A stretch of 25,363 nucleotides of DNA from a virus. Shown piece by piece: positions 4,150 to 14,228 of this stretch (within the stretch, counting starts at the first letter, position 1; each line of letters begins with the position of its first letter). The DNA is taken from positions 1 to 25,363 of the IMG/VR virus record IMGVR_UViG_3300006917_000138; one strand, 5' to 3'. The notes below the pieces were generated by a model. The model was not told the DNA's origin, searched no databases, and saw only the letters and a program-made list of their open reading frames with translations. A program made the translations under genes and the position numbers.

Positions 4150-5112
4150 CTAGTTGCGTATCGGCATCAGGAGCGCCATGCGGGAGCCGTCACGGATAAC
4201 TAGCGGGCGCGTAATCATCTCTGCCGTGTCTGCCGATTCGATAGCGCCCTGGCAACCCGCCAAAGCTGCGCCAAGGTAGGCGGCGTTCACGGTGAAAGTC
4301 TGGCCGGCGCTGGTGGCGTTCACGGTGGCGAGCACATCGCCGGGCGTTTTCGACTTGGGACGGAACCCGAACACATCCGCGCCCGTGGCGCTCACCTTGA
4401 CGGCACACACGGCCTTATCCGCTAGGTAAGGCTTGACGATTGCCACATTCTCGGCGGGCATTACCGGGTGTGTGGTCTCGGGGATGATATTCCCAAAGTT
4501 GGGAAAGTCTCCCAACACTGTGCGCACGGTGAGGGAGATGGATCCGCTAGCGATAGTCGCCACGCCTAAATCGGTGTCTATGGCGACTGTGGCGGCGGGC
4601 ACGCGCGCTAGCCACGCCACGCTAGCGGCGGGGACAGTGCCCGCGCATGGCATCGGTAGGTCTGCCACATGTAGGCGGAACCTGTCCGTTGCGGCTACCT
4701 TGTCCCCATCGAAACGAACCGCGCACAAGATAGGCATGCCGTAATCTGTGGCGCTTGCGCTAGCAACCCAAGCAACGTCGGCAGGATTCACAGGGACACC
4801 ATTAGGCACGGGCGCTAGCGCCGGGGGCGCATCCGGCGCGTTAGGGATAGTGAACGAAAGGCCTTTCCCGTTAGTAACGGTTGCGCCCGTGTCGGTAGGC
4901 GTGACTGTTGCGCCCGTAATCATGTCTCGCGCAATATCGCGCGCGTATGTGACGGGTGCGAGAGTGGCGCTAGGGATAGCCACGCGCAGAGTAGCGTTAG
5001 TGCCGCTAATGGTGATGCCGTCGGCGTTGGCGCTAATGGTGCGCCCAAACTTGCCGGCGCTGGATTCGAACGCGCGCAAGATAGCGCCCGCTAGTGTTGC
5101 GTTGATTTTCAT
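4150..5112 (-). CDS. dnaN: DnaN-like DNA polymerase sliding clamp
   Basis: 320 aa from an ATG at 5112 with an AGAGGGA site upstream; a longer open frame to 5187 is ignored because it runs through the promoter. Clamp signatures are spread along the chain: TDRFRLHVADLP mid-protein, then 'TVRTVLGDFPNFGNIIPE' (the FP.Y..IIP motif), VNAAYLGAALAG, and the C-terminal RPLVIRDGSRMALLMPIR, which matches the end of bacterial DnaN. It would encircle DNA as a processivity factor. It is shorter than bacterial clamps (about 366-400 aa) but probably keeps three domains. It forms its own unit between a promoter and a terminator. Ala/Thr/Val-rich composition and many GCGCTAG motifs set it apart. Confidence 0.85.
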   Translation of the reverse strand: MKINATLAGAILRAFESSAGKFGRTISANADGITISGTNATLRVAIPSATLAPVTYARDIARDMITGATVTPTDTGATVTNGKGLSFTIPNAPDAPPALAPVPNGVPVNPADVAWVASASATDYGMPILCAVRFDGDKVAATDRFRLHVADLPMPCAGTVPAASVAWLARVPAATVAIDTDLGVATIASGSISLTVRTVLGDFPNFGNIIPETTHPVMPAENVAIVKPYLADKAVCAVKVSATGADVFGFRPKSKTPGDVLATVNATSAGQTFTVNAAYLGAALAGCQGAIESADTAEMITRPLVIRDGSRMALLMPIRN

Positions 5113-5158
5113 TAGGTTCCCTCTCATAGGTGCCGGGCGGGGTGCCCTGGCATGTCGA

Positions 5159-5187
5159 ATAGTGGCAGACCCGTAACGGATCCGCAA
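5159..5187 (-). promoter_or_regulatory. Promoter of dnaN
   Basis: -35 TTGCGG (5182-5187), 17-nt spacer, -10 CACTAT (5159-5164), with a predicted start near 5152 and a leader of about 40 nt. It shares CGTAAYGCTTGCG over the -35 and TGCCACTAT over the -10 with the promoter at 6418-6446. The repetition is the main support. Confidence 0.65.
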
Positions 5188-5220
5188 GCGTTACGCGCCA
5201 CACACGGGGGCGCGCGCGCG

Positions 5221-5331
5221 TTAGCGCTTGTGCGCCGTGTTGCTTGCATCCCAACCTTGCGCCCAACCACGGCGAAAGCCGTAAAGGTTAGACACAAGCG
5301 AAACGGCGGCAACGATGACGGCGACCCTCAC
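5221..5331 (-). CDS. 36-aa small membrane protein
   Basis: GTG at 5331 in a GTGA overlap with the stop of the preceding gene, ending TAA at 5221. The first 18 residues (VRVAVIVAAVSLVSNLYG) form a hydrophobic helix, then FRRGWAQGWDASN and a basic end. I recall similar tiny proteins from actinophages but know no function. Confidence 0.65.
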   Translation of the reverse strand: MRVAVIVAAVSLVSNLYGFRRGWAQGWDASNTAHKR

Positions 5332-5489
5332 AGTTTGCCCCCCCACATGGCGACAAGCTCAGCGGCGGTAGGCATGCGTTGACCCTCAGGGCTAGCGGCC
5401 CAACAGTCAAGACACAGACCGCCGGGGAAGGTGGCTAGCGGGTCGGTGGGTTGTGCGCATGTGGCGCAGGGCACGGGTTCGCGGCTCAT
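5328..5489 (-). CDS. 53-aa zinc-ribbon-like protein
   Basis: ATG at 5489 overlapping the upstream TGA, stop at 5328 overlapping the next GTG. It has CATC near the N-terminus and CLDCW about 18 residues later, i.e. two CxxC knuckles, then PEGQRMPTAAELVAMWGGKL. It may bind zinc; the partner is unknown. The double stop/start overlap is strong support that it is real. Confidence 0.7.
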   Translation of the reverse strand: MSREPVPCATCAQPTDPLATFPGGLCLDCWAASPEGQRMPTAAELVAMWGGKL

Positions 5490-5803
5490 GCGGTCACCGG
5501 CTCATGCTCGGCCGCGCTAGACGTGGCGCAGTTGTCTAAACACGCCCCGCATACAGTCTCGCCGGGTGCGTAGCCGTCGAGTTTGTAATCACACGCGCAA
5601 AACCCGCACACGCACCGGCTTACAGACTCGGCGCTAGATGCGGTCTGCGCCTCAGACATGGCGAGCGCCACCGCGTACCGGTGCGAATCTGTCAGGCCCT
5701 CTAAGTAGTCCCACGTCTCGGGCGTGATGTTTGACGTATCCAACACGACAAGGCCGGCAGCGTCACCGTATGAGCCATCGGCGGCGAAATATGCGCGACT
5801 CAT
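5486..5803 (-). CDS. Conserved hypothetical with Cys cluster (105 aa)
   Basis: ATG at 5803 in an ATGA overlap with the upstream stop; an in-frame ATG at 5821 is less likely. The N-terminal part reads as small strands, then 'ITPETWDYLEGLTDSHRYAVALAM' is a helical segment. The C-terminal third has CVCGFCACD and CGACLDNC, a likely zinc site. Second gene of the 6372-5221 operon. Confidence 0.7.
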   Translation of the reverse strand: MSRAYFAADGSYGDAAGLVVLDTSNITPETWDYLEGLTDSHRYAVALAMSEAQTASSAESVSRCVCGFCACDYKLDGYAPGETVCGACLDNCATSSAAEHEPVTA

Positions 5804-6372
5804 CGGGCACCGCCCAAGCAATCAACCGCGCAAACCTCACCCGCAGGCACGTCGCAACCCTCGCACGCACGCGCTAGCCACGGATGCCCCCACACCTGGC
5901 AGCCGTGACAATCGCAAGCCGCCAGCAGCCGCACCGCTTCATCGTTGAACGTGGTGCGGGTAAGCGCGCGAACCGATTCGACAACAGTGAAAGGTTGCTC
6001 AGGATCCTGAACGGGTATGCCGTCACGCATGCCGCGCCACACCGCTACGAGCGAACCGAACCGGCACCACACGCTCACCGCATACTCGCGCCCGTCGCTA
6101 GGGTCGAACCCTGCCCCGCGCGATTCGCGCACAAGAAACCCGAACGGCTCGCGCGGGTTTCCGTCGTTCATGATGTTCCACGACAGGACACGCGAGCGGA
6201 AGAAACGCCGCGTATCGGTGTCGAAGTAGTGCGAACCCATGTGCCGCGTTGCTTGGATCACCGTGTATTCACTAGCGCCCGCGTAAAGCTCAGGCAGATA
6301 GCCCCGGCACCCGTTACAGGTACACGGGAAAGCCTTGCGCGGTGTCTGTCCCGCGCCGATGTTTCTAGCCAT
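5800..6372 (-). CDS. Conserved hypothetical protein, first gene of operon (190 aa)
   Basis: ATG at 6372 with a GAGAGGA site; the frame runs on to 6450 but crosses the promoter, so the inner ATG is chosen. Cysteines cluster at both ends: CTCNGCRGY near residue 20 and CDCHGCQVWGHPWLARACEGC near the C-terminus. The middle is beta-rich (FFRSRVLSWN, EYAVSVWCRFGSLVAVWRGM). No enzyme motif is recognised. It leads four overlapping genes ending at 5221. Confidence 0.7.
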   Translation of the reverse strand: MARNIGAGQTPRKAFPCTCNGCRGYLPELYAGASEYTVIQATRHMGSHYFDTDTRRFFRSRVLSWNIMNDGNPREPFGFLVRESRGAGFDPSDGREYAVSVWCRFGSLVAVWRGMRDGIPVQDPEQPFTVVESVRALTRTTFNDEAVRLLAACDCHGCQVWGHPWLARACEGCDVPAGEVCAVDCLGGAR

Positions 6373-6417
6373 TGTTTCTGTCCTCTCAAACAGTGCCGCC
6401 ACTGTGACGGCCTGCGC

Positions 6418-6446
6418 ATAGTGGCACAAACCAAACCCGCGCGCAA
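6418..6446 (-). promoter_or_regulatory. Promoter of the 6372-5221 operon
   Basis: -35 TTGCGC (6441-6446), 17-nt spacer, -10 CACTAT (6418-6423), predicted start near 6411 and a leader of about 40 nt. Near copy of the dnaN promoter, including the 13-mer CGTAAYGCTTGCG and the 9-mer TGCCACTAT. Confidence 0.65.
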
Positions 6447-6569
6447 GCATTACGGCGAAACACTTTCACGGGCGTGTCCCCTGGCACATCGAACAGAACC
6501 CGCGAACAGGATCCGCGCAAGCCTCGGCGCAGAAGATTCGCGCAAGCCTTGGCAAGGATCCGCGCAAGC
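6442..6569. repeat. Four GCTTGCG boxes (iteron/operator-like)
   Basis: CGCAAGC (GCTTGCG on the minus strand) occurs at 6442-6448, 6516-6522, 6541-6547 and 6563-6569; the three upstream copies are 25 and 22 bp apart, and two follow GGATCCG. The first overlaps the -35 element. A fifth copy is in the dnaN promoter. Consistent with a regulator binding site repeated upstream. Confidence 0.55.
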
Positions 6570-6582
6570 ATTGACAGACACA

Positions 6583-6706
6583 CCGGCAGCGGCTGGAAAC
6601 GCCGGCAGCGGCTGAGCAGTTCACACGCGCGGGCACACGCGCGGGCACACGCGCGGGCGCGCACGAGACGGAAGGGAAGGTGGGAGGGAAGGTGGGAAGG
6701 TGGGGG
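6583..6706. repeat. Direct and tandem repeats in intergenic region
   Basis: CCGGCAGCGGCTG occurs at 6583-6595 and 6602-6614. Three perfect head-to-tail copies of ACACGCGCGGGC fill 6623-6658. A purine tract of GGGAAGGTG-type units follows at 6671-6706. With the GCTTGCG boxes and hairpins, the non-coding stretch 6373-6809 is the most repeat-dense in the window. Confidence 0.75.
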
Positions 6707-6714
6707 CAAAAGAA

Positions 6715-6750
6715 ATCCCCCCGCACAGTGAGAGGTCTGTACGGGGGGAT
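6715..6750 (-). terminator. Strong Rho-independent terminator
   Basis: Stem of 14 pairs with one mismatch: arm 6715-6728 (ATCCCCCCG then CACAG) with 6737-6750, loop of 8 nt, followed on the minus strand by ATTTCTTTT. It closes the unit containing the 92-aa gene at 6810-7088. Confidence 0.8.
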
Positions 6751-6751
6751 C

Positions 6752-6799
6752 TTCCCGCCCTGCTGGGGGAGGGGCGGGGAACTAGCGCCGTGGCGCTAG
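6752..6799. repeat. Second hairpin and CTAGCGCC palindrome
   Basis: A 9-bp inverted repeat pairs 6752-6760 with 6772-6780 (CCCGCCC/GGGCGGG core). It is followed by a perfect palindrome CTAGCGCC-GT-GGCGCTAG at 6782-6799. Together with the terminator at 6715 there are three hairpins in 85 nt. Confidence 0.6.
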
Positions 6800-6809
6800 G
6801 ACTGTAACC

Positions 6810-7088
6810 CTACACAATCGCTGGGGGTTGGTCAAGTGCGTGCTTGTCGTAATCCAGTTCGGTGAGTTCTTTGGTTCGAAGGTCACGGTAGTCGGCCAGT
6901 GCTGACAGGATGTCGGTGACGAGTGCGCGTGCCTCGGGCAGGGTGAACGTCATGCTGAAAGTGGACAGTTGCGGCGCGTCAGCATCGGTGCTTGGGGTGA
7001 AGTGGCTGCCGCTGATTTGGATGCTTTGTGTTTCTTCGAACAAGGTCACCTTCGGTTGAAGGTTGGATGTGTTGATGTATGACCGCAT
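6810..7088 (-). CDS. Hypothetical protein (92 aa)
   Basis: ATG at 7088 with AAGGAGG 6 nt upstream. Beta-rich N-terminus (KVTLFEETQSIQISG) and a helical C-terminal half, 'LPEARALVTDILSALADYRD'. No cysteines, no signal peptide, no recognised family. It has a good promoter (7122-7150) and a strong terminator (6715-6750), so it is probably a single-gene unit. Confidence 0.7.
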   Translation of the reverse strand: MRSYINTSNLQPKVTLFEETQSIQISGSHFTPSTDADAPQLSTFSMTFTLPEARALVTDILSALADYRDLRTKELTELDYDKHALDQPPAIV

Positions 7089-7121
7089 GATTTGCCTCCT
7101 TGTTGTGCGGTTAGGTGGGAG

Positions 7122-7150
7122 AAACTAGTGGCGCTAGCAACGAAAGTCAA
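7122..7150 (-). promoter_or_regulatory. Promoter of the 92-aa gene
   Basis: -35 TTGACT (7145-7150), exactly 17-nt spacer, -10 TAGTTT (7122-7127); start near 7115, about 27 nt before the ATG. The spacer contains GCTAGCGCC. Confidence 0.6.
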
Positions 7151-7159
7151 GCGACACGC

Positions 7160-7345
7160 CTAATCTTCTTCAGCTTCCTCAATCTCCACATCGAACGGGT
7201 TCCAGTTAGCTGCCTTCACCTGGCTGATTGATTGGGTCATGAGTTCCACTGCGCGGTTAGCCATGTCATGCGCTGCGTCCGGGTAAGGCTTATCCGATTC
7301 CAAACTGATCTCAATCTGGCCTAAGGTGACGGTGATTTTCAGCAC
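7160..7345 (-). CDS. Small hypothetical protein, possibly leaderless (61 aa)
   Basis: Starts at GTG 7345 (VLKITVTLGQIEISLESDK...). A longer version from ATG 7384 would put its start codon in the loop of a strong hairpin and has no ribosome binding site. TACAAT ends 6 nt before the GTG, the spacing expected for a leaderless actinobacterial mRNA, and no Shine-Dalgarno is present. The product has an N-terminal sheet, a helix (AHDMANRAVELMTQSISQ) and an acidic tail EIEEAEED. Confidence 0.55.
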   Translation of the reverse strand: MLKITVTLGQIEISLESDKPYPDAAHDMANRAVELMTQSISQVKAANWNPFDVEIEEAEED

Positions 7346-7360
7346 GGTCTGATTGTAGAA

Positions 7361-7402
7361 CCCGCACCCCCCGTGGTTGACCATGGAACACGGGGGGGCG
7401 GG
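7361..7402 (-). terminator. Very strong GC hairpin after the transglycosylase gene
   Basis: 14-bp stem with one bulged A: 7361-7375 pairs with 7389-7402 (CCCGC...CCGTG / CACGG...GCGGG), 13-nt loop. It starts 9 nt past the stop of the gene at 7412. The following minus-strand bases TTCTACAAT give a poor U tract, so it may be a terminator, an mRNA stabiliser or an insulator. Confidence 0.6.
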
Positions 7403-7411
7403 AGTATGAAT

Positions 7412-7843
7412 CTAATACCAGCCGTGGTTGTCGTGGTGCGCTAGCGCTGCACAAGGTGTGGAATACCTGTGGACGATGTATGTGATGCCCCGCTGAATCT
7501 GCTCACGCACCGGCGTGTCCGGGTCAAGCCCAAGAATCTGCGGGACACCACCCGCGCCGCTGCGACGGTTCAATGCTTGGGGGCGGAAGTTTGATTCCCT
7601 CGTCCACAAGCGCATGAGGCAAGCAAGTTGGTTCCCACGCCAGCCTTGTTCACGCGCAAGAACCACAGTGATCTTGCGGGCGAAAAAAGGTGTTCGGCTG
7701 GCGCGGGGCGTGGATGTGGTGGGAATTGAACCCACGTCCACGACCAGGCACTTCGGCTTTATGGCCGTGTCGAAACCTTCCACACCCGTAGGCGCTAGCG
7801 ATGCGCCCACAAGCAGAACACTAGCGGATACTCTCAATAGCAT
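7412..7843 (-). CDS. Exported lytic transglycosylase-like protein
   Basis: 143 aa from ATG 7843, with AAAGGGG about 7 nt upstream. Residues 1-22 resemble a signal peptide (hydrophobic VSASVLLVGASLA). Residues about 72-143 match the SLT-like domain of actinobacterial/actinophage secreted proteins: CLMRLWTRESNF with Glu83 as candidate catalytic acid, SGAGGVPQILGL, then 'GITYIVHRYSTPCAALAHH' and GWY at the end. It would cleave peptidoglycan glycan strands, in lysis or as a virion-associated enzyme. Oddity: codons 19-45 coincide with a tmRNA-like RNA (7711-7787), so the signal/linker part may be a chance open frame and the true start could be downstream. Confidence 0.65.
   Translation of the reverse strand: MLLRVSASVLLVGASLAPTGVEGFDTAIKPKCLVVDVGSIPTTSTPRASRTPFFARKITVVLAREQGWRGNQLACLMRLWTRESNFRPQALNRRSGAGGVPQILGLDPDTPVREQIQRGITYIVHRYSTPCAALAHHDNHGWY
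7711..7787 (-). ncRNA. Compact tmRNA-like (tRNA-like domain) RNA
   Basis: Read on the minus strand: 5' GGGUGUG pairs with 3' CACAUCC (7-bp acceptor, one G-U), then GGUUUCGAC, the diagnostic tmRNA 5' motif in place of a D-arm. A 7-bp P2-like helix follows, CACGGCC (7763-7769) with GGUCGUG (7739-7745), closing a 17-nt loop. Then comes a perfect T-arm GUGGG-UUCAAUU-CCCAC (7719-7735), joined directly to the acceptor, with discriminator A. CCA is not encoded (CG follows). A run of six T lies about 25 nt downstream. No mRNA-like domain or pseudoknots fit in 77 nt. It could be a minimal TLD RNA or a tmRNA remnant. No canonical D-arm or anticodon arm is present, so it is not an ordinary tRNA. Confidence 0.55.
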
Positions 7844-8009
7844 CACGCACCCCTTTCGGGTTTCCCTCAGGCCCTAACGCGGCGAGTTGTTCCACTGTGA
7901 GTAAGTGAATGTCAGTGTAGACGCGGCATTCACGGCACACCTTCTGGTCTCTAGGTTTCCATGCGCAACATTCGGGGCAGTCATTGTTTGCTGTAGTTTC
8001 GTTGCACAT
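7821..8009 (-). CDS. Small zinc-ribbon protein (62 aa)
   Basis: ATG at 8009, overlapping the WhiB gene end by 29 nt; the frame is open further upstream but only as a shadow of WhiB. It contains MCNET, CPECC and CRECR, i.e. three cysteine knuckles in the first 35 residues, then a helical 'LLTVEQLAALGPEGNPKGVRD' segment. Probably a structural zinc protein in the WhiB operon. Function unknown. Confidence 0.6.
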   Translation of the reverse strand: MCNETTANNDCPECCAWKPRDQKVCRECRVYTDIHLLTVEQLAALGPEGNPKGVRDAIESIR

Positions 8010-8310
8010 TCTGCAATCCCAGCGTGTAAAGGTAAGTGTCCCCGGATACGTTGTGGGGGGTGATGCCGAGTCTTTTACGTTCGGCAATGATTTTGCGTTC
8101 CGTGTATCCACCCCACACACCGTCTACGCGGTTGTGGAGCGCGTATTCGCGGCATTTCAACAGTAGTGGGCAGCCGTGGCACACTTGAGTGACCGCGAGC
8201 TGGTGGTCGTGTTCTTCGATGAAGAACCAGTCTGGGTCTACACCGGGGTCTACGCATCTGGCGCTGTCGTTGATCCATGACAGGTCGTTGGCTTTCACTT
8301 CGGGCATCAT
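7981..8310 (-). CDS. whiB: WhiB-family transcription regulator
   Basis: 109 aa, ATG 8310 overlapping the upstream stop. The Fe-S cluster cysteines are Cys19, Cys44, Cys47 and Cys53 (C-x24-C-x2-C-x5-C; CHGCPLLLKC), followed by the GVWGG turn at 64-68 and a basic ERKIIAERKR segment for DNA contact. WhiB proteins are restricted to Actinobacteria and their phages and bind the host sigma factor. Phage copies can compete with host WhiB proteins. This is the strongest host indicator in the window. The tail past residue 85 is longer than minimal WhiB proteins. Confidence 0.93.
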   Translation of the reverse strand: MMPEVKANDLSWINDSARCVDPGVDPDWFFIEEHDHQLAVTQVCHGCPLLLKCREYALHNRVDGVWGGYTERKIIAERKRLGITPHNVSGDTYLYTLGLQNVQRNYSKQ

Positions 8311-8594
8311 CCCTGCTCACCGTCCAATGCTTTGATGGTTTCGCAGGGCCACCGCTCCATGCCGTAGTCCGGGTGGTACGGACAGCCGTGGCACTCCAAC
8401 ACCGTCCGCGATGTGCATTCAGGCTTGCACTGCCATCCTTGACGCCAAACCCATTGAGTCTCGCGGTGAGGACAATCGCTGCCGTGAACCCACTGTCGGG
8501 ACTCCACGGGCTTATGCAGATGACGGACACGTTTGGTAGCGGCGATGGCTTTGTCCAGTGCAGTCTCTAAAAATCTGACTTCATCGGTGCTCAT
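8307..8594 (-). CDS. Cys/His/Trp-rich hypothetical protein (95 aa)
   Basis: ATG 8594 in an ATGA overlap with the upstream gene; stop overlaps the WhiB start. The N-terminal helix MSTDEVRFLETALDKAIAAT is followed by CPHRETQWVW, CKPEC and CHGCPYHPDY, so a zinc or Fe-S site is likely. CHGCP recalls the WhiB neighbour, but GVWGG is absent. No known family. Confidence 0.65.
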   Translation of the reverse strand: MSTDEVRFLETALDKAIAATKRVRHLHKPVESRQWVHGSDCPHRETQWVWRQGWQCKPECTSRTVLECHGCPYHPDYGMERWPCETIKALDGEQG

Positions 8595-8770
8595 CCCCGC
8601 TCACCATGCTTACCATCATTGACATCCCGACGCATTCTCTCCTGCGCCGCCCGCAACCCACGCCTATACGCCTGACGCAGCTTCATGCACATCGTGCAAC
8701 CCGTGAACTCATACCCAGCCAACGCACACTCAGGCTCATGCGTCACCTTCAAAACATCATGCCTCATCAT
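8591..8770 (-). CDS. Small hypothetical protein (59 aa)
   Basis: ATG 8770 with GGGAGG 6 nt upstream; overlaps the previous gene by 14 nt and the next by 4 nt. Sequence: MMRHDVLKVTHEPECALAG, then CTMCMKLRQAYRRGLRAAQE and a charged end. Three cysteines suggest metal binding, and the C-terminus is a basic helix. Unrecognised. Confidence 0.6.
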   Translation of the reverse strand: MMRHDVLKVTHEPECALAGYEFTGCTMCMKLRQAYRRGLRAAQERMRRDVNDGKHGERG

Positions 8771-8918
8771 CCACATCCTCCCACTCCCAAATCTGGTCAT
8801 AATGTGCCGGCTGGCACTGCGGGCAATATGCGTCGATACGCCCATACGCTGTGTACTCATCCCACTTGCCATAATCACCGCAACGGCAACACATACGCAA
8901 ATCACGCTGCCTGCTCAC
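8757..8918 (-). CDS. Small zinc-ribbon protein (53 aa)
   Basis: GTG 8918 with GGAGG 7 nt upstream; GTGA overlap with the preceding gene. CCRCGDYGKWDEY and CPQCQPAHYD form a typical two-knuckle CxxC...CxxC ribbon; the C-terminus is acidic (WEWEDVDDEA). Likely a nucleic-acid or protein-binding accessory of unknown role. Confidence 0.6.
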   Translation of the reverse strand: MSRQRDLRMCCRCGDYGKWDEYTAYGRIDAYCPQCQPAHYDQIWEWEDVDDEA

Positions 8919-9097
8919 CGCAACACCTCCATAGCCAACTCGATAGCGACAACAGCGATACCGCAATACACGGCCAGAGTCTTGTCCGTCGTGTTGCGCT
9001 GCAAATCTTTCAGCGTGGACAAAATGTTGTGAAGATCCCCGAAATCGTGTGCGTCGGGTTGGCGCTGGGGCTGTTTGCTCCCAAGGTCTAAAACCAC
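8915..9097 (-). CDS. Small membrane protein with hairpin-masked RBS (60 aa)
   Basis: GTG 9097 preceded by AGGAGG at ideal distance, but that site lies in the 3' arm of an 11-bp hairpin (9098-9132). The first 35 residues are polar (possible amphipathic helix HDFGDLHNILSTLKDLQ), then one hydrophobic helix LAVYCGIAVVAIELAMEVL. It sits a few genes after the holin-like gene; a lysis regulator or antiholin is possible. Inference only. Confidence 0.6.
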   Translation of the reverse strand: MVLDLGSKQPQRQPDAHDFGDLHNILSTLKDLQRNTTDKTLAVYCGIAVVAIELAMEVLR

Positions 9098-9132
9098 GAT
9101 TGCCTCCTAACCGTAGTGGTCAGGAGGCAATC
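9098..9132 (-). promoter_or_regulatory. RBS-sequestering hairpin
   Basis: On the minus strand GATTGCCTCCT (from 9132) is followed after 13 nt by its exact complement AGGAGGCAATC ending at 9098, just before the GTG at 9097. Three more pairs are possible in the loop. The AGGAGG ribosome binding site is fully paired. No U tract follows, which argues against a terminator. Confidence 0.7.
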
Positions 9133-9153
9133 TATGGGATGCGGGAAGGGCTG

Positions 9154-9525
9154 TCAAGCATCCAAAGCAGCGAGTTGCTCATCAATAGCCACAACCATCT
9201 CCGCGAGAGTCACAAGGTTCTGGTCAGCTAGGGCTAGTTCGTCGTGGAAGTCCCGGTCAGGGTTCGCCTGGTGGATTAGTTGCAGGCGCTGCTTGCTGCG
9301 TTGCGTGTCGTAGCCCTGGCCGATGATGGCTTGGCGTTCGGCTTGCAGTGTGGCGCGCTGTGTTTCAACGCTGATTGCTGCGGTGAAGTCGATTTTGTTC
9401 AGGTCTGGTCGCCAGTCAGGTTGAATTGGAGCTGGCGGGTTCTCGTTCGGCCCCACCGCGAGTCGGAGGGGTCGAGTGCTGTGATTGCTAGTGGCAGGGT
9501 GCTTGCCAGTGCTGCTGCGAGCCAT
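9154..9525 (-). CDS. Hypothetical helical protein (123 aa)
   Basis: ATG 9525 with GGAGGA about 9 nt upstream. It overlaps the holin-like gene by 127 nt in another frame, which is unusual, but the ribosome binding site is good. A Pro-rich N-terminus (about 1-45) leads to heptad-like helices, 'ETQRATLQAERQAIIGQGYD' and 'ALADQNLVTLAEMVVAIDEQ', suggesting a coiled coil. No known family. A later start is possible but none has a comparable ribosome binding site. Confidence 0.55.
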   Translation of the reverse strand: MARSSTGKHPATSNHSTRPLRLAVGPNENPPAPIQPDWRPDLNKIDFTAAISVETQRATLQAERQAIIGQGYDTQRSKQRLQLIHQANPDRDFHDELALADQNLVTLAEMVVAIDEQLAALDA

Positions 9526-9632
9526 GTTTTGGTGTCCTCCAGTGTGACGGTTGTGAGGTCAGCGCCTTGCGCTAGGAACAGGGTGAGGATGCTGGCGAGG
9601 AAAACCTTGCCGTAGGACTTCAAGATGATCAT
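9399..9632 (-). CDS. Holin-like membrane protein (77 aa)
   Basis: ATG 9632 in an ATGA overlap with the upstream gene. Two hydrophobic segments, VFLASILTLFLAQG and TWLAAALASTLPLAITAL, are separated by a short turn, ending in LDPSDSRWGR. This two-helix plan with the conserved 'ALDP.D.R(W/F)GR' end is what I know from actinophage holin/membrane proteins. It would permeabilise the inner membrane for endolysin release, but endolysin genes are not adjacent. Confidence 0.65.
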   Translation of the reverse strand: MIILKSYGKVFLASILTLFLAQGADLTTVTLEDTKTWLAAALASTLPLAITALDPSDSRWGRTRTRQLQFNLTGDQT

Positions 9633-10153
9633 GGTTGGACGCTATCACATTCGCAGTGGCGCTTGTGGCAGTTGATGCACATTCCGGCTTTCTGTTCTGA
9701 GGCGCAGCCTCGGCAGGGTTGTGGATTGTCGTGGTAGTTGCAGCGTTGTTGATATTTATTGTTGTTATTACTGTTGTAACCAAGCCCAGTTGGGGTTTTA
9801 GCGTCCCCAGTTGGGGTTTTAGGGGGGGTGGAGTTGGGGTTTTCTTCCCCAAAACCCCAAGTGAGTTGGGGTTTTATTTCGGGGTTATCCACAGCCTTCA
9901 GGAAGCGAAACTCGGTGGCCTTACCCCGACCCCAACCCTGCTTTGTGACCTCAATCACACCATCCTCAATGAACTTCAACAACGTCAACCGCGCATACTC
10001 CACCGAACACCGGGCCTTCGCCGCTAGCGCCGCTTTCGACGCGAAAAACACCCCCTCATCGGTTGCCCAATCAGCTACCGCCAGAAGAACCAGAAGTTCT
10101 TTTCCATCGTAGGGTGCGCTTGTCCACACTCGGCTCATCAGTTTGATACTCAC
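9629..10153 (-). CDS. Winged-helix replication-initiator-like protein
   Basis: 174 aa, GTG 10153 with a perfect AGGAGG 6 nt upstream. Residues about 10-85 form a winged helix-turn-helix: SAPYDGKELLVLLAVADWAT, FFASKAALAAKARCSVEYAR, FIEDGVIEVTKQGWGRGKA. A low-complexity linker follows (PPKTPTGDAKTPTG, NSNNNNKYQQ), encoded by the AGTTGGGGTTTT repeats, then a Cys/His ribbon (CNYHDNPQPCRGC ... CINCHKRHCEC). The plan (HTH, Asn/Pro linker, zinc ribbon) fits phage replication organisers. Binding to its own internal repeats is an inference. Confidence 0.7.
   Translation of the reverse strand: MSIKLMSRVWTSAPYDGKELLVLLAVADWATDEGVFFASKAALAAKARCSVEYARLTLLKFIEDGVIEVTKQGWGRGKATEFRFLKAVDNPEIKPQLTWGFGEENPNSTPPKTPTGDAKTPTGLGYNSNNNNKYQQRCNYHDNPQPCRGCASEQKAGMCINCHKRHCECDSVQP
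9788..9876. repeat. AGTTGGGGTTTT iterons inside the winged-helix gene
   Basis: Four direct copies start at 9788, 9809, 9832 and 9864 (spacings 21, 23, 32 bp). An inverted copy AAAACCCCAA at 9851-9860 forms a 10-bp hairpin with 9866-9875. AT-rich sequence (TTGATATTTATTGTTG) lies alongside at about 9745-9780. The arrangement resembles phage origins placed within the initiator gene. Confidence 0.7.
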
Positions 10154-10403
10154 GGGTTGCCTCCTGAATGGTTTCTAGCGTTGTCTTCGCCTGCGAGACG
10201 GGGGTGTGCCAGCGTCCGTTGTGGCTGACCAAACCCATCTCGGTTGCGGGGTCTTTGCAGCGCAGCCGATCCTTGTGCTGGTCTTGGTTGTGGTTGTCGA
10301 ATGTTTCGTGGCAGGTGACGCAGTGCCACGCGCTGACCTCCCAGACGGCTTTACAGGCTCGACAGCGGAACCATTGACCATTTACCTTGCCTGATAGCCT
10401 CAT
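10071..10403 (-). CDS. Zinc-finger protein (110 aa)
   Basis: ATG 10403; the C-terminal 27 codons overlap the start of the winged-helix gene. N-terminal cysteines FRCRACKAVWEV and WHCVTCHETFDNHNQDQHKD form a C2..C2/H-type zinc module (residues about 12-45), with LRCKDP beyond. A Zn module upstream of a replication initiator suggests DNA binding. The last 25 residues (basic, SGSSGGS) may be only loosely constrained because of the overlap. Confidence 0.65.
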   Translation of the reverse strand: MRLSGKVNGQWFRCRACKAVWEVSAWHCVTCHETFDNHNQDQHKDRLRCKDPATEMGLVSHNGRWHTPVSQAKTTLETIQEATREYQTDEPSVDKRTLRWKRTSGSSGGS

Positions 10404-10421
10404 CGTGGCTCTCCGTTCGTT

Positions 10422-11255
10422 TTAGGGGCCTTCTAGGGGCATTGTAGGGGCAGGGTCTTCATAATCCACGAAGCAACCACACCCGCCGATATCAAAATCA
10501 TCAAACATGGCAGGCTGCTCCTCCACCCGCCGCCGAATCTCCACCAAAGGAAGATTACGTTTCACACCCTTACTCACCTCAGTCAGAATCGTCTGATCCT
10601 TACCGAGGAACTCGGCCACCTCTTTCTCTTTCTGCTCCCAGCGGGCAAACCGTTCCGGCATCAACTCAAGTAACTGCTTGAACTGTGCCTGCCCAGCTCG
10701 AACACACCCCCCGCCACAGTTGTTGTGGGAGAAACCCAAGTCATACAACCGAGGAGTTGTGAGACCTTCACTGCGTGCCCACTCAATCATCTCCTTCTTC
10801 GACAAGTACGGGGGTTCAATCAGCGGGGCTTTCGCCACATACGGCAGATAGTGGCGTTCAATTGCCGGGAACCTGTGGGTTTCAGTCCAGTCAATACCCA
10901 CATACACAATCGTTTCCGCTGGGTCACAATTCTCGTTCAACCATTTGCGGGACGGCTTCTGCTTCAACTCCGTCGAACAGTTCGCTTGACGTGAATTGCC
11001 CAGAAACTTGCGATCCTTGAACACCTGCCAAATGTCCCGGCCATCAGCCACAATCACCAGTTCAGCACCAACATTCTCGGCGGCATCGTGAATGAACCTG
11101 TAAGTGTCCTCATCCTCACCGACGTGCGGATCAGGATTGTTGCCTTTCACGTCAGCGAACAAGAGAATCAAATTCTCAGTGCCGTGTTCCTCAGCCACTC
11201 GTTTCGCTGTGGCCCACGAACCGATACCGCCACTGAACATCACAACATGCTTCAT
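10422..11255 (-). CDS. PP-loop ATPase, PAPS-reductase-like (II)
   Basis: 277 aa, ATG 11255 overlapping the nuclease stop. The PP-loop is FSGGIGSW (residues 7-14). Family motifs follow: DVKGNNPDP, NSRQANCSTELKQKP, VGIDWTETHRFPAIE, and C-terminal cysteine clusters NNCGGGCVRAGQ and DIGGCGCFVD. Such adenine-nucleotide alpha-hydrolases adenylate a substrate, in sulfur transfer or nucleoside modification. The in-family Cys clusters suggest a metal/Fe-S site. Sulfate assimilation is unlikely for a phage; a DNA/nucleotide modification role is inferred from the neighbours. Confidence 0.8.
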   Translation of the reverse strand: MKHVVMFSGGIGSWATAKRVAEEHGTENLILLFADVKGNNPDPHVGEDEDTYRFIHDAAENVGAELVIVADGRDIWQVFKDRKFLGNSRQANCSTELKQKPSRKWLNENCDPAETIVYVGIDWTETHRFPAIERHYLPYVAKAPLIEPPYLSKKEMIEWARSEGLTTPRLYDLGFSHNNCGGGCVRAGQAQFKQLLELMPERFARWEQKEKEVAEFLGKDQTILTEVSKGVKRNLPLVEIRRRVEEQPAMFDDFDIGGCGCFVDYEDPAPTMPLEGP

Positions 11256-11596
11256 AGTTCCTCCATTTGTTTCAAGATGGCAAGAAACTCAGCGCCGGAC
11301 ATGGTGACAAACCAATCCCTCGCGCTGCCCTTGCCCTTCCTGCGATGCCACACCACACCGAACTCAGCGCCAGCGTTGGTCTTCTCCCGCTCTACCTCAC
11401 CCAACCACTCAGCGAGCTTGCCCGCATAGGAGTCGTGGGCTTTCACCTCAAACACCCACCCCGGCACCCCAAGCACATCACCCTTGTCGAGGGTTCCCGC
11501 TAGCGCTCTACGTTCGGCGTGAATGAATCCGGCTTCCTTCAGGGCTTCAACGACAGCGTTCTCACCCCTGGTGCCTTTCGCTTTCGCTTTGCTCAT
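11252..11596 (-). CDS. Holliday-junction-resolvase-like nuclease
   Basis: 114 aa, ATG 11596 in an ATGA overlap with dpdA. It starts KAKGTRGENAVVEALKEAGF (the RG.xxE helix of Hjc/archaeal-type resolvases), then GDVLGVPGWVFEVKA, i.e. a PD-(D/E)XK core with GD...EVK, followed by LAEWLGEVEREKTNAGAEFG. It would cut branched DNA before packaging. VRR-NUC-type nucleases are an alternative. Confidence 0.75.
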   Translation of the reverse strand: MSKAKAKGTRGENAVVEALKEAGFIHAERRALAGTLDKGDVLGVPGWVFEVKAHDSYAGKLAEWLGEVEREKTNAGAEFGVVWHRRKGKGSARDWFVTMSGAEFLAILKQMEEL

Positions 11597-12225
11597 GTCT
11601 CACTCATTTCAAAATCAAGGATGTGTTGCATATCCCAACCATCAACCCACGACATAAGTTTAGGCGCGTTCACATTCGGCCCAAAGGCTATGTAGGTTCC
11701 GTCCATACTGTCTGCGCCACGAGCCGCCATTCCTTCATACCTTCTTCGACTGTTGACGCGACCAACGTGAACCCACTTTCCTTTCTCCTTCGCAATTTCC
11801 ATAAGCCGGTAAGCGTCATTTCCCAATTTCCATTCAGTAGATCCACCAACAAATAGGGCATCAAACTCTTCCCACGGACAGTTTTTATTAGTTAGTCCGT
11901 CTTGAGCCACAAATGAAGCCTTATAACCTAACGATTTGATGCGGGCAAGCCAAGGAATTGAGCGTTGCAATGTCGCTTTGGCATCACCAACTACATCTGG
12001 TGCAGTGGCAAAAAGGCATAGACCACGAACCAGCTCGGGAAATGAATCAAGCCACGCAAACCAACGCTCGTCACCAACATAGTTTTTGCCAAAACAACCG
12101 TTGTCTGCTGCCCATATCCATTGGTTCATAGTGTGGCAATTGGCTGGAGTATTCATATAACCGAGACGTTGTGCGTCTAAAAGATGACGCACGCCCGTCA
12201 CGCTTCCCGTGAGATAGATCGCCAC
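11593..12225 (-). CDS. dpdA: DpdA-family DNA guanine transglycosylase
   Basis: 210 aa, GTG 12225 overlapping the transporter end by 28 nt. The tRNA-guanine transglycosylase (TGT) pattern is visible in order: AADNGCF (39-45; cf. SDSGGF of TGT), APDVVGD (75-81), FVAQDG (105-110), FVGGS (125-129), HVGRVNSRRR (153-162) and GADSMDGT (170-177; cf. GVDMFDC, whose last Asp is the nucleophile, here Asp175). The short length and DNA-virus context point to the DpdA branch, which swaps guanine in DNA for a 7-deazaguanine. I see no zinc-site Cys cluster of the tRNA enzyme. Confidence 0.85.
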   Translation of the reverse strand: MAIYLTGSVTGVRHLLDAQRLGYMNTPANCHTMNQWIWAADNGCFGKNYVGDERWFAWLDSFPELVRGLCLFATAPDVVGDAKATLQRSIPWLARIKSLGYKASFVAQDGLTNKNCPWEEFDALFVGGSTEWKLGNDAYRLMEIAKEKGKWVHVGRVNSRRRYEGMAARGADSMDGTYIAFGPNVNAPKLMSWVDGWDMQHILDFEMSET

Positions 12226-12695
12226 GATAGTCCAGCCGCTGCAATTGCCGCGATGATGGTTTTGACGATGAATTGACCAATAACAGCCTCGGTTGTTACT
12301 CCAAATCCTGCTAGTTGAAGAAACAGAATGGTGTCAATTGGGGCCGAAGCAACGCTTGAACCAATAACTGCCAGCGGCAAACTCCGCTTCCTCAGTGGCG
12401 TGTAAATGAAAAAATCAACAAGTTCAGATGCGAAAAACGCCAAACAAGAAGCTAGTGCCAGGGAAGGATTCGATGTTGCAGCAGATATGACTGCACCGAC
12501 AACGATTGAAACCAGCACAAACTTCTTGTCAGTAACCTCTTGAAGCCCGTCGCGCAAAACAAGAACCGCGCCAGCTAGGAAAGTTCCGGCAGTGACAGTG
12601 ATGCCAATGATGGAAACGAGTCCAAAGGTTTCGGTTGCGACATTTGCCGCAATGATTGAACTGATGTAAGCAACTGCAAAAGCGATTTTCTTCAC
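12198..12695 (-). CDS. yhhQ: VUT/YhhQ-family queuosine-precursor transporter
   Basis: 165 aa; start GTG 12695 with AGGAGG 7 nt upstream, not the longer frame to 12776. About five to six membrane helices: FAVAYISSIIAANVATE, 'GITVTAGTFLAGAVLVLRDG', FVLVSIVVGAVISAATS, LALASCLAFFASELVDF, VIGSSVASAPIDTILFL, FIVKTIIAAIAAAG. The motifs LRDGLQEV, SELVDFFIYTPLRKR and APIDTILF are typical of the VUT family, which imports preQ0/preQ1. It overlaps dpdA, the enzyme that would use the imported base. Confidence 0.85.
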   Translation of the reverse strand: MKKIAFAVAYISSIIAANVATETFGLVSIIGITVTAGTFLAGAVLVLRDGLQEVTDKKFVLVSIVVGAVISAATSNPSLALASCLAFFASELVDFFIYTPLRKRSLPLAVIGSSVASAPIDTILFLQLAGFGVTTEAVIGQFIVKTIIAAIAAAGLSWRSISREA

Positions 12696-12729
12696 GATAA
12701 AACCTCCTGTTTGGATACTGCTGGATTGG

Positions 12730-12804
12730 TTAGCGGAACAATCTGCGGGCAATCTCAACCGCAGCGCAAGCCACAATGATGATGAACACCGACTGGGTAA
12801 TCAT
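12730..12804 (-). CDS. 24-aa hydrophobic micropeptide
   Basis: ATG 12804 in an ATGA overlap with the PP-loop gene stop, ending TAA at 12730. Sequence MITQSVFIIIVACAAVEIAR then RLFR: one membrane helix plus a basic end. It lies 35 nt before the transporter start and may be a small membrane partner or a coupling leader peptide. Short, so uncertain. Confidence 0.45.
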   Translation of the reverse strand: MITQSVFIIIVACAAVEIARRLFR

Positions 12805-13658
12805 TCTTCAAACGCCAAAAAACGCTCATCGCAACCGCTGCACAAGATGCCACTCTTGGATGGTTTCTGCTTATTGCCACCCCATCCCCAACGGCAACGC
12901 TCTAACCCAGCAGCCTCAACTTCTTTTTCAAGTTCACGGATCTCAGCAGCAACCTCTGGAAACCAAAAGGCAATCTCATCTAACTCTCCTGGCTTAGCAA
13001 AGGCCCCACACAAACACTCACCCGACATATGGAGAGTGTCACTTGCTAAGTTGCGTGGAATATCGGGATTCAACTCTCGATACCAACCTAAATCATTTTT
13101 AGTCCAATGAACCATCGGGCTAATCCACACAATACTTCCAGTCACATTTACCTCTGGGACATTTGCGCGACGACTCGACTCGTCTCGACGACGGCCAGCC
13201 AAATAAATGATGCGTTGTTTGCGAGGTTCTTTGACGTAATCGCGTCGAACCTTCATCAGACCACGTTCTTTGAGCCGTTGGTACATTTTGAAATGCATTG
13301 CTGGGCCGGGGAATCCCTGATCTAAAACAAGTTCACGATAAGTGCTACCCGGAGGTGGATGCTCCTCAATCAAGGGAAGATTCCAGCTTGCGCAAGTGTC
13401 CCGTACAAACTGGCGAGTTTGTTCGATTCCGATTCCCGTATTCACATGCACCGCACAGTCAACCCAATTTCGAAATAAGTGGGTCATTGTTGTGGAGTCA
13501 TTGCCACCCGAATACAAGGCGCATTTCTTCACAATCTCGCGGTCACCAACATACATTTCAATGGCATCATTGATAATTCTCCAAGATTCTTTCACCAAAT
13601 TTGCAATGTGGTCTTCTCTGTAATTTTGGTTACCCGAAATATCTGTATCGTAAATCAT
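12801..13658 (-). CDS. PP-loop ATPase, PAPS-reductase-like (I)
   Basis: 285 aa, ATG 13658 with GAGGAGA upstream. PP-loop CALYSGGNDSTTM (about 46-58), then HVNTGIGIEQTRQFVRDTC, 'STYRELVLDQGFPGPAMHFK', AGRRRDESSRRA, a Cys pair ECLCGAF and a C-terminal WGWGGN...CSGC. This is the phage type of the phosphoadenosine phosphosulfate reductase/adenine-nucleotide hydrolase superfamily, also the fold of QueC and DndC. It differs from the second PP-loop protein at 10422 in nearly all motifs, so it is not a recent duplicate. The role is unknown; the position suggests involvement in the modification cassette. Confidence 0.8.
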   Translation of the reverse strand: MIYDTDISGNQNYREDHIANLVKESWRIINDAIEMYVGDREIVKKCALYSGGNDSTTMTHLFRNWVDCAVHVNTGIGIEQTRQFVRDTCASWNLPLIEEHPPPGSTYRELVLDQGFPGPAMHFKMYQRLKERGLMKVRRDYVKEPRKQRIIYLAGRRRDESSRRANVPEVNVTGSIVWISPMVHWTKNDLGWYRELNPDIPRNLASDTLHMSGECLCGAFAKPGELDEIAFWFPEVAAEIRELEKEVEAAGLERCRWGWGGNKQKPSKSGILCSGCDERFLAFEE

Positions 13659-13807
13659 TTGCGTCTCCTCACCTTCAAATCCTCAAGCCTGCGCCACGCC
13701 TCATACGCCTCCCGCAAGGCCTGCGGCACAAAACCCCTATCGTTCACAAGGATCTTGTGCCGCCTAGCCCAACGGCGAATCTCCCGATCAGAATGGGGGC
13801 TGCTCAT
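13655..13807 (-). CDS. Lsr2-like DNA-binding protein (50 aa)
   Basis: ATG 13807, overlapping the SSB end by 20 nt and the next start by 4 nt; the longer frame to 13894 is a shadow of SSB. SDREIRRWARRHKILVNDRG and FVPQALREAYEAWRR match the C-terminal DNA-binding domain of Lsr2 (IR.WA...G..V..RGR.P..v..AY), an actinobacterial nucleoid silencer. The usual RGR minor-groove clasp reads DRGF here, so binding may be altered. No dimerisation domain; possibly a dominant-negative or small regulator. Confidence 0.75.
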   Translation of the reverse strand: MSSPHSDREIRRWARRHKILVNDRGFVPQALREAYEAWRRLEDLKVRRRK

Positions 13808-14228
13808 CAACAATCTTCCCACCAAGAGAAGCCACCACATCAGCAGCAGACAACGGATTAGCCAACTGCTCCCGACCCTGACGGCGCTCCACACGACTCA
13901 CAGAAGCCTTCTGATTCGACAACGCCACACCAACCTCGCTGGCAACAAGTTCCCAACCGCGCTGCTCCTGACCGTCCTTGTCGTACACGGTCTCCTTCAA
14001 CTCCCCGGACACAATCACCTTCGTGCCCTTCGCAAGGGACTCAGCAACATGCTCGGCTAGCGCACGCCACGCCGTCACCCGATACCACGTCGTCTCACCA
14101 TCAGTCCACTGGCCGTCCTTCTGCACACGCTTCGACACAGCCACACTGAACTTCGCCACACCCACACCGCTAGGCAAGAACTTCAACTCAGGTTCCCGAC
14201 CCACATTCCCAACAATCACTGTTGACAT
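13788..14228 (-). CDS. ssb: Single-stranded DNA-binding protein
   Basis: 146 aa, ATG 14228 with AGGAGA upstream. OB-fold signatures: TVIVGNVGREPELKFLPSG, VAKFSVAVSKR, ETTWYRVTAWRALAEHVAES, LAKGTKVIVSGELKE, GWELVASEVG. A shortened linker leads to the acidic tip DEQPPF, the site where SSB recruits partners. It acts with the annealing protein and exonuclease encoded just upstream. Confidence 0.93.
   Translation of the reverse strand: MSTVIVGNVGREPELKFLPSGVGVAKFSVAVSKRVQKDGQWTDGETTWYRVTAWRALAEHVAESLAKGTKVIVSGELKETVYDKDGQEQRGWELVASEVGVALSNQKASVSRVERRQGREQLANPLSAADVVASLGGKIVDEQPPF

What the first reader, a model, noticed from the sequence alone, without database searches (positions are those of the whole stretch)
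11593..12695. DpdA plus precursor transporter: salvage-type 7-deazaguanine DNA modification
Seen: a 210-aa protein with the TGT motif order (ADNGCF, PDVVGD, QDG, GGS, GADSMDGT), overlapping by 28 nt a VUT/YhhQ-type transporter. Known: DpdA proteins insert 7-deazaguanines into phage DNA and protect it from restriction; VUT proteins import preQ0/preQ1. Inferred: because no FolE/QueC/QueD/QueE is visible, this phage would draw precursor from host or medium through its own transporter. Translational coupling of importer and transglycosylase is a tidy two-gene system.
Basis: partly seen in the sequence, partly recalled or inferred. Interest (0 to 1): 0.82.

Follow-up and report, generated by a model that had tools for sequence, protein, structure and literature searches.

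The report
Phage DNA-base swapper with precursor importer
This phage carries two overlapping genes, one for a membrane importer of modified-guanine precursors and one for a small enzyme related to those that insert such guanines into phage DNA; the same pairing recurs in many unrelated phages, which suggests phages that disguise their DNA with a base taken from their surroundings.

Summary
The 210-aa protein (11593-12225, minus) overlaps the transporter gene (12198-12695, minus) by 28 nt. The transporter passes Pfam Vut_1. The 210-aa protein matches no named family (only phrog_15826, unknown function), but its AlphaFold model (pLDDT 89.8) has tRNA-guanine transglycosylase as best PDB match. 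It is profile-homologous to phage DpdA proteins, and its TGT-type residues (D41, D77, Q108, G127-G128, D175) are invariant in 14 relatives. It lacks the TGT zinc domain. New here is how strong the pairing is. Among viral relatives (80% clusters), 53 have the transporter, 10 have preQ0-synthesis genes, 5 neither, 0 both. On 32 whole contigs, 23 have the transporter without QueC and 8 have QueC without it. Starting from the transporter, 54 of 62 clusters carry the enzyme. A second DpdA-like family shows the same pairing (41 of 46). Some hosts lack queuosine genes altogether, so imported precursor would have no tRNA use. Best reading: a compact two-gene salvage cassette for 7-deazaguanine DNA modification. 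The DNA chemistry is not shown. A DndC/SspD-like ATPase gene is enriched about 13-fold within 1 kb, so a tailoring partner is possible. New variant of a known kind.

The parts
11593..12225 (-). small TGT/DpdA-like transglycosylase, 210 aa (phrog_15826)
   Evidence: AF2 pLDDT 89.8; Foldseek PDB best hit TGT 3s1g E 8.9e-6; hhalign to phage DpdA 94.4%, E 8.5e-8; phrog_15826 E 7.8e-70
12198..12695 (-). VUT/QPTR (COG1738, YhhQ-type) membrane transporter, 165 aa
   Evidence: Pfam Vut_1 1.3e-12, 48.8 bits over cut-off 27.2; phrog_4899 2.5e-34; hydrophobic segments
12198..12225 (-). 28-nt overlap of transporter 3' end and enzyme 5' end (translational coupling inferred)
   Evidence: overlaps of 4-41 nt recur in many relatives
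12703..12708 (-). AGGAGG ribosome-binding site of the transporter gene
   Evidence: read from sequence
12103..12105 (-). codon of Asp41 (ADNG; TGT Asp102-type general base)
   Evidence: invariant in 14 relatives; aligned with DpdA DSGA
11995..11997 (-). codon of Asp77 (PDVVGD; TGT Asp156-type)
   Evidence: invariant; aligned with DpdA LDVIGD
11902..11904 (-). codon of Gln108 (QDG; TGT Gln203-type; His in known DpdA alignment)
11842..11847 (-). codons of Gly127-Gly128 (GGS; TGT Gly230-type)
11701..11703 (-). codon of Asp175 (GADSMDGT; TGT Asp280-type nucleophile)
   Evidence: invariant; aligned with TGT G-V-D-x-F-D-C (weak overall match)
10422..11255 (-). SspD-like PP-loop ATPase, 277 aa; downstream end of the overlapping run, possible partner
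   Evidence: PADLOC SspD 3.1e-11; phrog_424 3.6e-59; PP-loop genes enriched within 1 kb of the enzyme
12801..13658 (-). DndC/PAPS-reductase-like PP-loop ATPase, 285 aa; upstream neighbour, possible partner
   Evidence: Pfam PAPS_reduct 1.8e-11; weak DndC 2.1e-4; 54% identical to the enzyme's neighbour in ReqiPine5
11252..11596 (-). small PD-(D/E)XK / RusA-like nuclease, 114 aa, 4-nt overlaps on both sides; same transcript likely, role unrelated
   Evidence: phrog_244 2.7e-26; overlaps read from sequence

Best explanation
It is a two-gene salvage cassette for 7-deazaguanine DNA modification. The VUT transporter brings a queuosine precursor (preQ0, preQ1 or a relative) into the infected cell. 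The small TGT-like enzyme, a short DpdA without the zinc/tRNA-binding domain, exchanges guanines in phage DNA for that base, which would protect the DNA from restriction. The two genes are translationally coupled so that import and insertion are made together. Shown here: the genes, their overlap, the transporter family, the enzyme fold and its homology to phage DpdA, conserved active-site positions, and the strong alternative pairing with either a transporter or preQ0-synthesis genes. Inferred: the substrate, DNA as target, base exchange, translational coupling, and protection.
For: Fold: AF2 pLDDT 89.8, pTM 0.88. PDB Foldseek top hits are TGT, E 8.9e-6, prob 1.00; viral library hits include the 'queuine tRNA-ribosyltransferase' (DpdA) of Sonali, Megan and Bella96. 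Homology: profile match to known phage DpdA 94.4%, E 8.5e-8, and to a bridging VUT-adjacent family that itself matches DpdA at 98.6%, E 9e-16. The DpdA of phage Knocker, which lies beside FolE, QueC, QueD and QueE, hits phrog_15826 at 3.5e-5. Pairing: 80% clusters of viral relatives give 53 VUT only, 10 Que only, 5 neither, 0 both. 32 long contigs give 23 VUT+/QueC- and 8 QueC+/VUT- (Fisher p 1.3e-7, not corrected for relatedness). 7 of the 8 QueC+ contigs have no other DpdA of the known type, so the small enzyme fills the DpdA slot there. Parsimony gives 7 switches between the two supplies, at least 2 forced by well-supported branches. Reverse test: 54 of 62 VUT clusters carry the enzyme, always same strand. 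Second DpdA-like family: 41 of 46 clusters next to VUT. Target: genomes of Nonomuraea turkmeniaca, Micromonospora and Planomonospora carrying the cassette have no convincing QueC, no TGT and no other VUT; complete phages GreaseLightnin, Aoka and ReqiPine5 have VUT but no QueC, and M. smegmatis has none of the Q genes (PMC6884629).
Against: No nucleoside measurement exists. Sequence profiles link the enzyme to DpdA, not to TGT itself (6%), although known phage DpdA scores TGT equally weakly (9%). Ribulose-phosphate epimerase barrels score close behind TGT in the fold search. VUT substrate cannot be read from sequence (PMC11130926). Some genomes carry the enzyme with neither VUT nor QueC nor TGT anywhere (Planotetraspora, two Nonomuraea). 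Seurat-type phages carry transporter plus full synthesis (PMC8310023), so the alternative is a trend of these families, not a law. The window is a fragment. Relatives were sampled from the best 80 of 455 matches.
Confidence: 0.74

Rival explanations
1. The pair serves tRNA: the phage imports a queuosine precursor and its small TGT puts it in host or phage tRNA to tune translation.
For: TGT fold; VUT-TGT pairs for tRNA salvage exist in bacteria (PMC11130926); chromosomal VUT lies next to TGT in Nocardia-type genomes here.
Against: Homology is to phage DpdA, not TGT. The CxCxxC...H zinc region of TGT is absent (compare invariants). Several hosts have no QueC or TGT, so no tRNA pathway to feed. 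The enzyme shares clusters with phage preQ0 operons.
Confidence: 0.1
2. The enzyme is a TGT-fold glycosylase or transglycosylase that uses a different base or nucleoside, and VUT imports that compound; it is DNA modification but not with a known 7-deazaguanine.
For: Short distinct family; Gln at the position where the DpdA alignment has His; PP-loop ATPases enriched next to it.
Against: Repeated replacement of VUT by QueC/QueE/QueD next to the same enzyme points to a preQ0-related substrate.
Confidence: 0.1
3. The two genes are a selfish or host-benefit moron: VUT feeds the host a micronutrient during lysogeny and the enzyme is decayed or structural.
For: G+C of the pair is 47.7% against 56.2% for the window, so it may be a recent insert; several relatives are in bacterial genomes.
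Against: All active-site-type residues are invariant across divergent relatives; hosts without Q genes would gain nothing; the pair sits in a replication/recombination gene region with overlapping genes.
Confidence: 0.06

Closest known systems
Phage DpdA / DpdA2 with FolE-QueD-QueE-QueC (9g, CAjan, Rosebush; PMC6884629)
   Same: TGT-type active-site order, profile homology, phage DNA-metabolism setting, same slot in preQ0 operons of some relatives
   Different: 210 aa against 282-319 aa in the DpdA set aligned here; no C-terminal extension; precursor comes through a transporter instead of synthesis; not matched by named TGT models
'DpdA-only' phages, group 3 of Hutinet et al. 2019 (Orion, Salmonella phage 7-11)
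   Same: DpdA without synthesis genes; uptake of precursor was suggested there
   Different: Orion (no modification found) was listed as DpdA only. That paper saw no correlation of YhhQ with any phage group; here a tight one is found for two short DpdA-like families
'DpdA-like tRNA-guanine transglycosylase' of actinophages (Aoka gp40, GreaseLightnin gp55)
   Same: Same family, 46-50% identical over the alignment, VUT gene immediately or one gene upstream
   Different: Annotated by name only; the neighbouring VUT is called membrane or hypothetical protein and no function or pairing is stated in those records
Enterobacter phage EC151 / Seuratvirus (PMC8310023)
   Same: phage preQ0 transporter plus DpdA
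   Different: Has complete synthesis as well; longer DpdA
Bacterial dpd islands with YhhQ (about 9% of islands; PMC11888242)
   Same: transporter near a DNA 7-deazaguanine system
   Different: Large islands with dpdB-K; not a two-gene phage cassette

Membership tests
DpdA (7-deazaguanine DNA transglycosylase) | sequence homology to known phage DpdA | tested here: met
   hhalign 94.4%, E 8.5e-8; bridge family 93.3% and 98.6%; Knocker DpdA hits phrog_15826 at 3.5e-5
DpdA (7-deazaguanine DNA transglycosylase) | TGT-type TIM barrel | tested here: met
   AF2 model pLDDT 89.8; Foldseek top hit TGT, DpdA models in viral library
DpdA (7-deazaguanine DNA transglycosylase) | conserved active-site residues (Asp, Asp, Gln/His, Gly-Gly, Asp) | tested here: met
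   D41, D77, Q108, G127, G128, D175 invariant in 14 relatives; no coordinates were superposed
DpdA (7-deazaguanine DNA transglycosylase) | inserts 7-deazaguanine into DNA | not testable with these tools
   needs LC-MS/MS or nanopore data
TGT (Pfam PF01702, bacterial tRNA enzyme) | match to the curated TGT model | tested here: not met
   no Pfam hit at E<=1, none in the six-frame search of the window, profile match 6%
TGT (Pfam PF01702, bacterial tRNA enzyme) | C-terminal CxCxxC...H zinc region | tested here: not met
   invariant in the TGT set (C308, C310, C313, H339), absent in this protein and its relatives
VUT/QPTR (COG1738, YhhQ) transporter | Vut_1 domain over curated cut-off | tested here: met
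   48.8 bits against 27.2
VUT/QPTR (COG1738, YhhQ) transporter | NCBIfam TIGR00697 equivalog cut-off | tested here: not met
   34.9 bits against 50.95: same family, more divergent than the curated core
VUT/QPTR (COG1738, YhhQ) transporter | transports preQ0, preQ1 or queuine | not testable with these tools
   substrate differs between members and cannot be read from sequence (PMC11130926)
Salvage-only phage (no preQ0 synthesis) | no QueC/QueD/QueE in the complete genome | tested here: inconclusive
   absent from the window, a fragment; QueC absent in complete relatives Aoka, GreaseLightnin, ReqiPine5 and in all 23 VUT+ contigs

The most novel reading that the evidence does not exclude
The cassette has a third, optional part: a DndC/SspD-like PP-loop ATPase that chemically tailors the salvaged base (for example an ATP-dependent sulfur or nitrogen transfer) before or after insertion, giving a DNA base not yet described. 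In the window two such genes flank the pair, and one ends the overlapping run of four genes.
Probability: 0.2. Interest if true: 0.85.

Novelty: new variant of a known kind. Interest (0 to 1): 0.62.

Why it matters
If right, two phage protein families of unknown function (phrog_15826, phrog_4899) gain a joint function, and a class of phages has DNA modification that depends on a nutrient in the surroundings. The state of the phage DNA, and so its sensitivity to restriction, would change with the medium. This is directly testable because isolated phages with the cassette grow on M. smegmatis, a host reported to have no queuosine genes at all. It also offers a reason why DpdA-only phages can look unmodified in laboratory medium, and gives a roughly 210-aa DNA transglycosylase as a possible tool.

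Tried and rejected
Pfam and NCBIfam scans of the enzyme gave nothing, as did sequence search of the PDB with its profile; structure and profile-profile comparison were needed. The transporter profile has no PDB sequence relative. A wide transporter alignment was too diverse for a DNA scan, so two narrower ones were used. Scans with Sonali DpdA and with one Que-type member found only near-identical records. The PD-(D/E)XK nuclease between enzyme and ATPase was considered as a part: its relatives lie at variable distances, so it is taken as an ordinary phage gene. No Rfam hit, including preQ1 riboswitches, near the cassette. PADLOC does not recognise the enzyme. Papers on four further phage deazaguanines and on CAjan nanopore mapping are not in the library, so a description of this short family there cannot be excluded.

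Full report
WHAT IS THERE. The window is a 25,363-base IMG/VR virus record, probably a fragment. Terminase, portal, SSB, Rad52-type annealing protein and exonuclease genes mark it as a tailed phage. An Lsr2 DNA-binding domain and terminase relatives mostly in Streptomyces and Microbacterium phages suggest an actinobacterial host (inference). On the minus strand four genes overlap head to tail: transporter (12695-12198), small enzyme (12225-11593), PD-(D/E)XK nuclease (11596-11252) and SspD-like ATPase (11255-10422). A DndC/PAPS-reductase-like ATPase (13658-12801) lies just upstream. The transporter has a perfect AGGAGG site and the enzyme none, so coupling is likely. The pair has 47.7% G+C against 56.2% for the window, as if acquired.

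THE ENZYME. It matches no Pfam or NCBIfam model, only phrog_15826 of unknown function. The AlphaFold model is confident (pLDDT 89.8, pTM 0.88). The best solved structures are tRNA-guanine transglycosylases (3s1g, E 8.9e-6, 14% identity), with ribulose-phosphate epimerase barrels close behind, so fold alone would not settle it. Sequence profiles do better. The family matches a set of phage DpdA proteins at 94.4% (E 8.5e-8), and a bridging family of about 225-245 aa at 93.3%, which matches DpdA at 98.6% (E 9e-16). PHROG models agree: the DpdA of phage Knocker, encoded beside FolE, QueC, QueD and QueE, hits phrog_15826 at 3.5e-5 and the bridge family hits it at 7.8e-5. Asp41, Asp77, Gln108, Gly127-128 and Asp175 are invariant in 14 relatives down to 29% identity. 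The zinc region of TGT is missing. I therefore call it a short DpdA-like transglycosylase, related to DpdA but in a family of its own.

THE TRANSPORTER. Vut_1 at 48.8 bits, over its cut-off; below the stricter TIGR00697 equivalog cut-off. Characterised members of this family transport preQ0, preQ1 or queuine, with differing specificity (PMC11130926; PMC5372724).

THE PAIRING IS NOT CHANCE. Scans and annotated records gave 170 loci, plus the window, that encode the enzyme. Seventy-eight of these 171 have a VUT gene, always on the same strand and mostly directly upstream with short overlaps. Those without it often have QueC, QueE and QueD next to the enzyme instead. At 80% identity the viral clusters split into 53 VUT only, 10 Que only, 5 neither and 0 both. 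On 32 long contigs with curated Pfam models, 23 have Vut_1 and no QueC, 8 have QueC and no Vut_1, 1 has neither. Seven of the eight QueC contigs have no other known-type DpdA, so the short enzyme sits where DpdA normally sits. On a tree of 90 enzymes the supply label changes 7 times by parsimony; strongly supported branches force at least 2. Starting from the transporter, 54 of 62 clusters carry the enzyme or its bridge-family relative; that set was seeded with transporters found beside the enzyme, so it is not fully independent. The bridge family gave a fresh sample: 41 of 46 clusters have VUT next door, all same strand, in phages as far apart as a cyanophage, an Escherichia drexlervirus and a gut siphovirus.

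WHY DNA RATHER THAN tRNA. Three actinomycete genomes carrying the cassette have no convincing QueC, no TGT and no other VUT, so imported precursor would have no tRNA use. M. smegmatis, host of GreaseLightnin and relatives, is reported to have none of the Q genes (PMC6884629). Arthrobacter phage Sonali and one contig carry both the short enzyme and a longer DpdA, which may mean different target sites; this is unexplained.

WHAT WAS KNOWN. Hutinet et al. 2019 (PMC6884629) proposed that DpdA-only phages could use host or imported precursors, noted that some phages encode YhhQ, and saw no correlation with any phage group. EC151 has a transporter as well as full synthesis (PMC8310023). About 9% of bacterial dpd islands have YhhQ (PMC11888242). 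Actinophage records already name this protein 'DpdA-like'. What appears new is the short family as the sole DpdA-like enzyme, its near-constant pairing with VUT, and the either-or with synthesis. Two central papers could not be read here, and the 2024 review was not held.

AN UNASKED-FOR PARTNER. PP-loop ATPase genes resembling DndC or SspD occur within 1 kb of the enzyme 12 times among 88 representatives, always same strand, against 5 in the remaining 937 kb (Poisson p 3e-10). They sit on either side in different lineages, including Caballeronia/Paraburkholderia loci with a clear DndC match (1.2e-32). Such genes are also common in actinophages without the enzyme, so this is a lead, not a conclusion.

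VERDICT. The missing step is chemistry: no 7-deazaguanine has been measured in the DNA of any phage with this cassette in the work available here.

Noticed in passing
L131 7617-9415; L135 about 4334-10681 and similar Caballeronia/Paraburkholderia loci: A distant branch of the enzyme is followed after about 240 nt by a DndC-like PP-loop gene in most of some two dozen Burkholderiales loci; in L135 an SMC-like ATPase and an integrase-like gene lie nearby, with no VUT or Que genes within 8 kb. Looks like an undescribed mobile modification or defence island.
   Followed up: partly
L106, L108, L110, L113 (Thermocatellispora, Planotetraspora, Nonomuraea genomes): The enzyme occurs in genomes where no VUT was found and QueC and TGT are absent (three genomes searched whole), in L113 beside a C5-cytosine methylase and a PP-loop gene; the base it would use is unexplained.
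   Followed up: partly
L090 and L094 (QueC at G017:7374-7943, G018:26263-26832): QueC next to the enzyme carries an in-frame TGA in two records; pseudogene, error or recoding not tested.
   Followed up: no
L300 3932-4524 (Escherichia phage phiG7): A remnant-like, split copy of the enzyme family lies between the sliding clamp and DNA polymerase genes of a Seuratvirus that also has a full DpdA pathway.
   Followed up: no
L004 (Sonali gp81 and gp87); L051: Two different DpdA-like transglycosylases in one phage, the short one and a longer one, suggesting divided target sites.
   Followed up: no
BFVD A0A0F7L9Z1 (uncultured marine virus, 499 aa): The closest viral model (TM 0.77, 24% identity) contains the short enzyme as part of a much larger protein, possibly a fusion.
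   Followed up: no
window 13655-13894 (-): A 79-aa protein with an Lsr2 DNA-binding domain, typical of actinobacteria and their phages.
   Followed up: no
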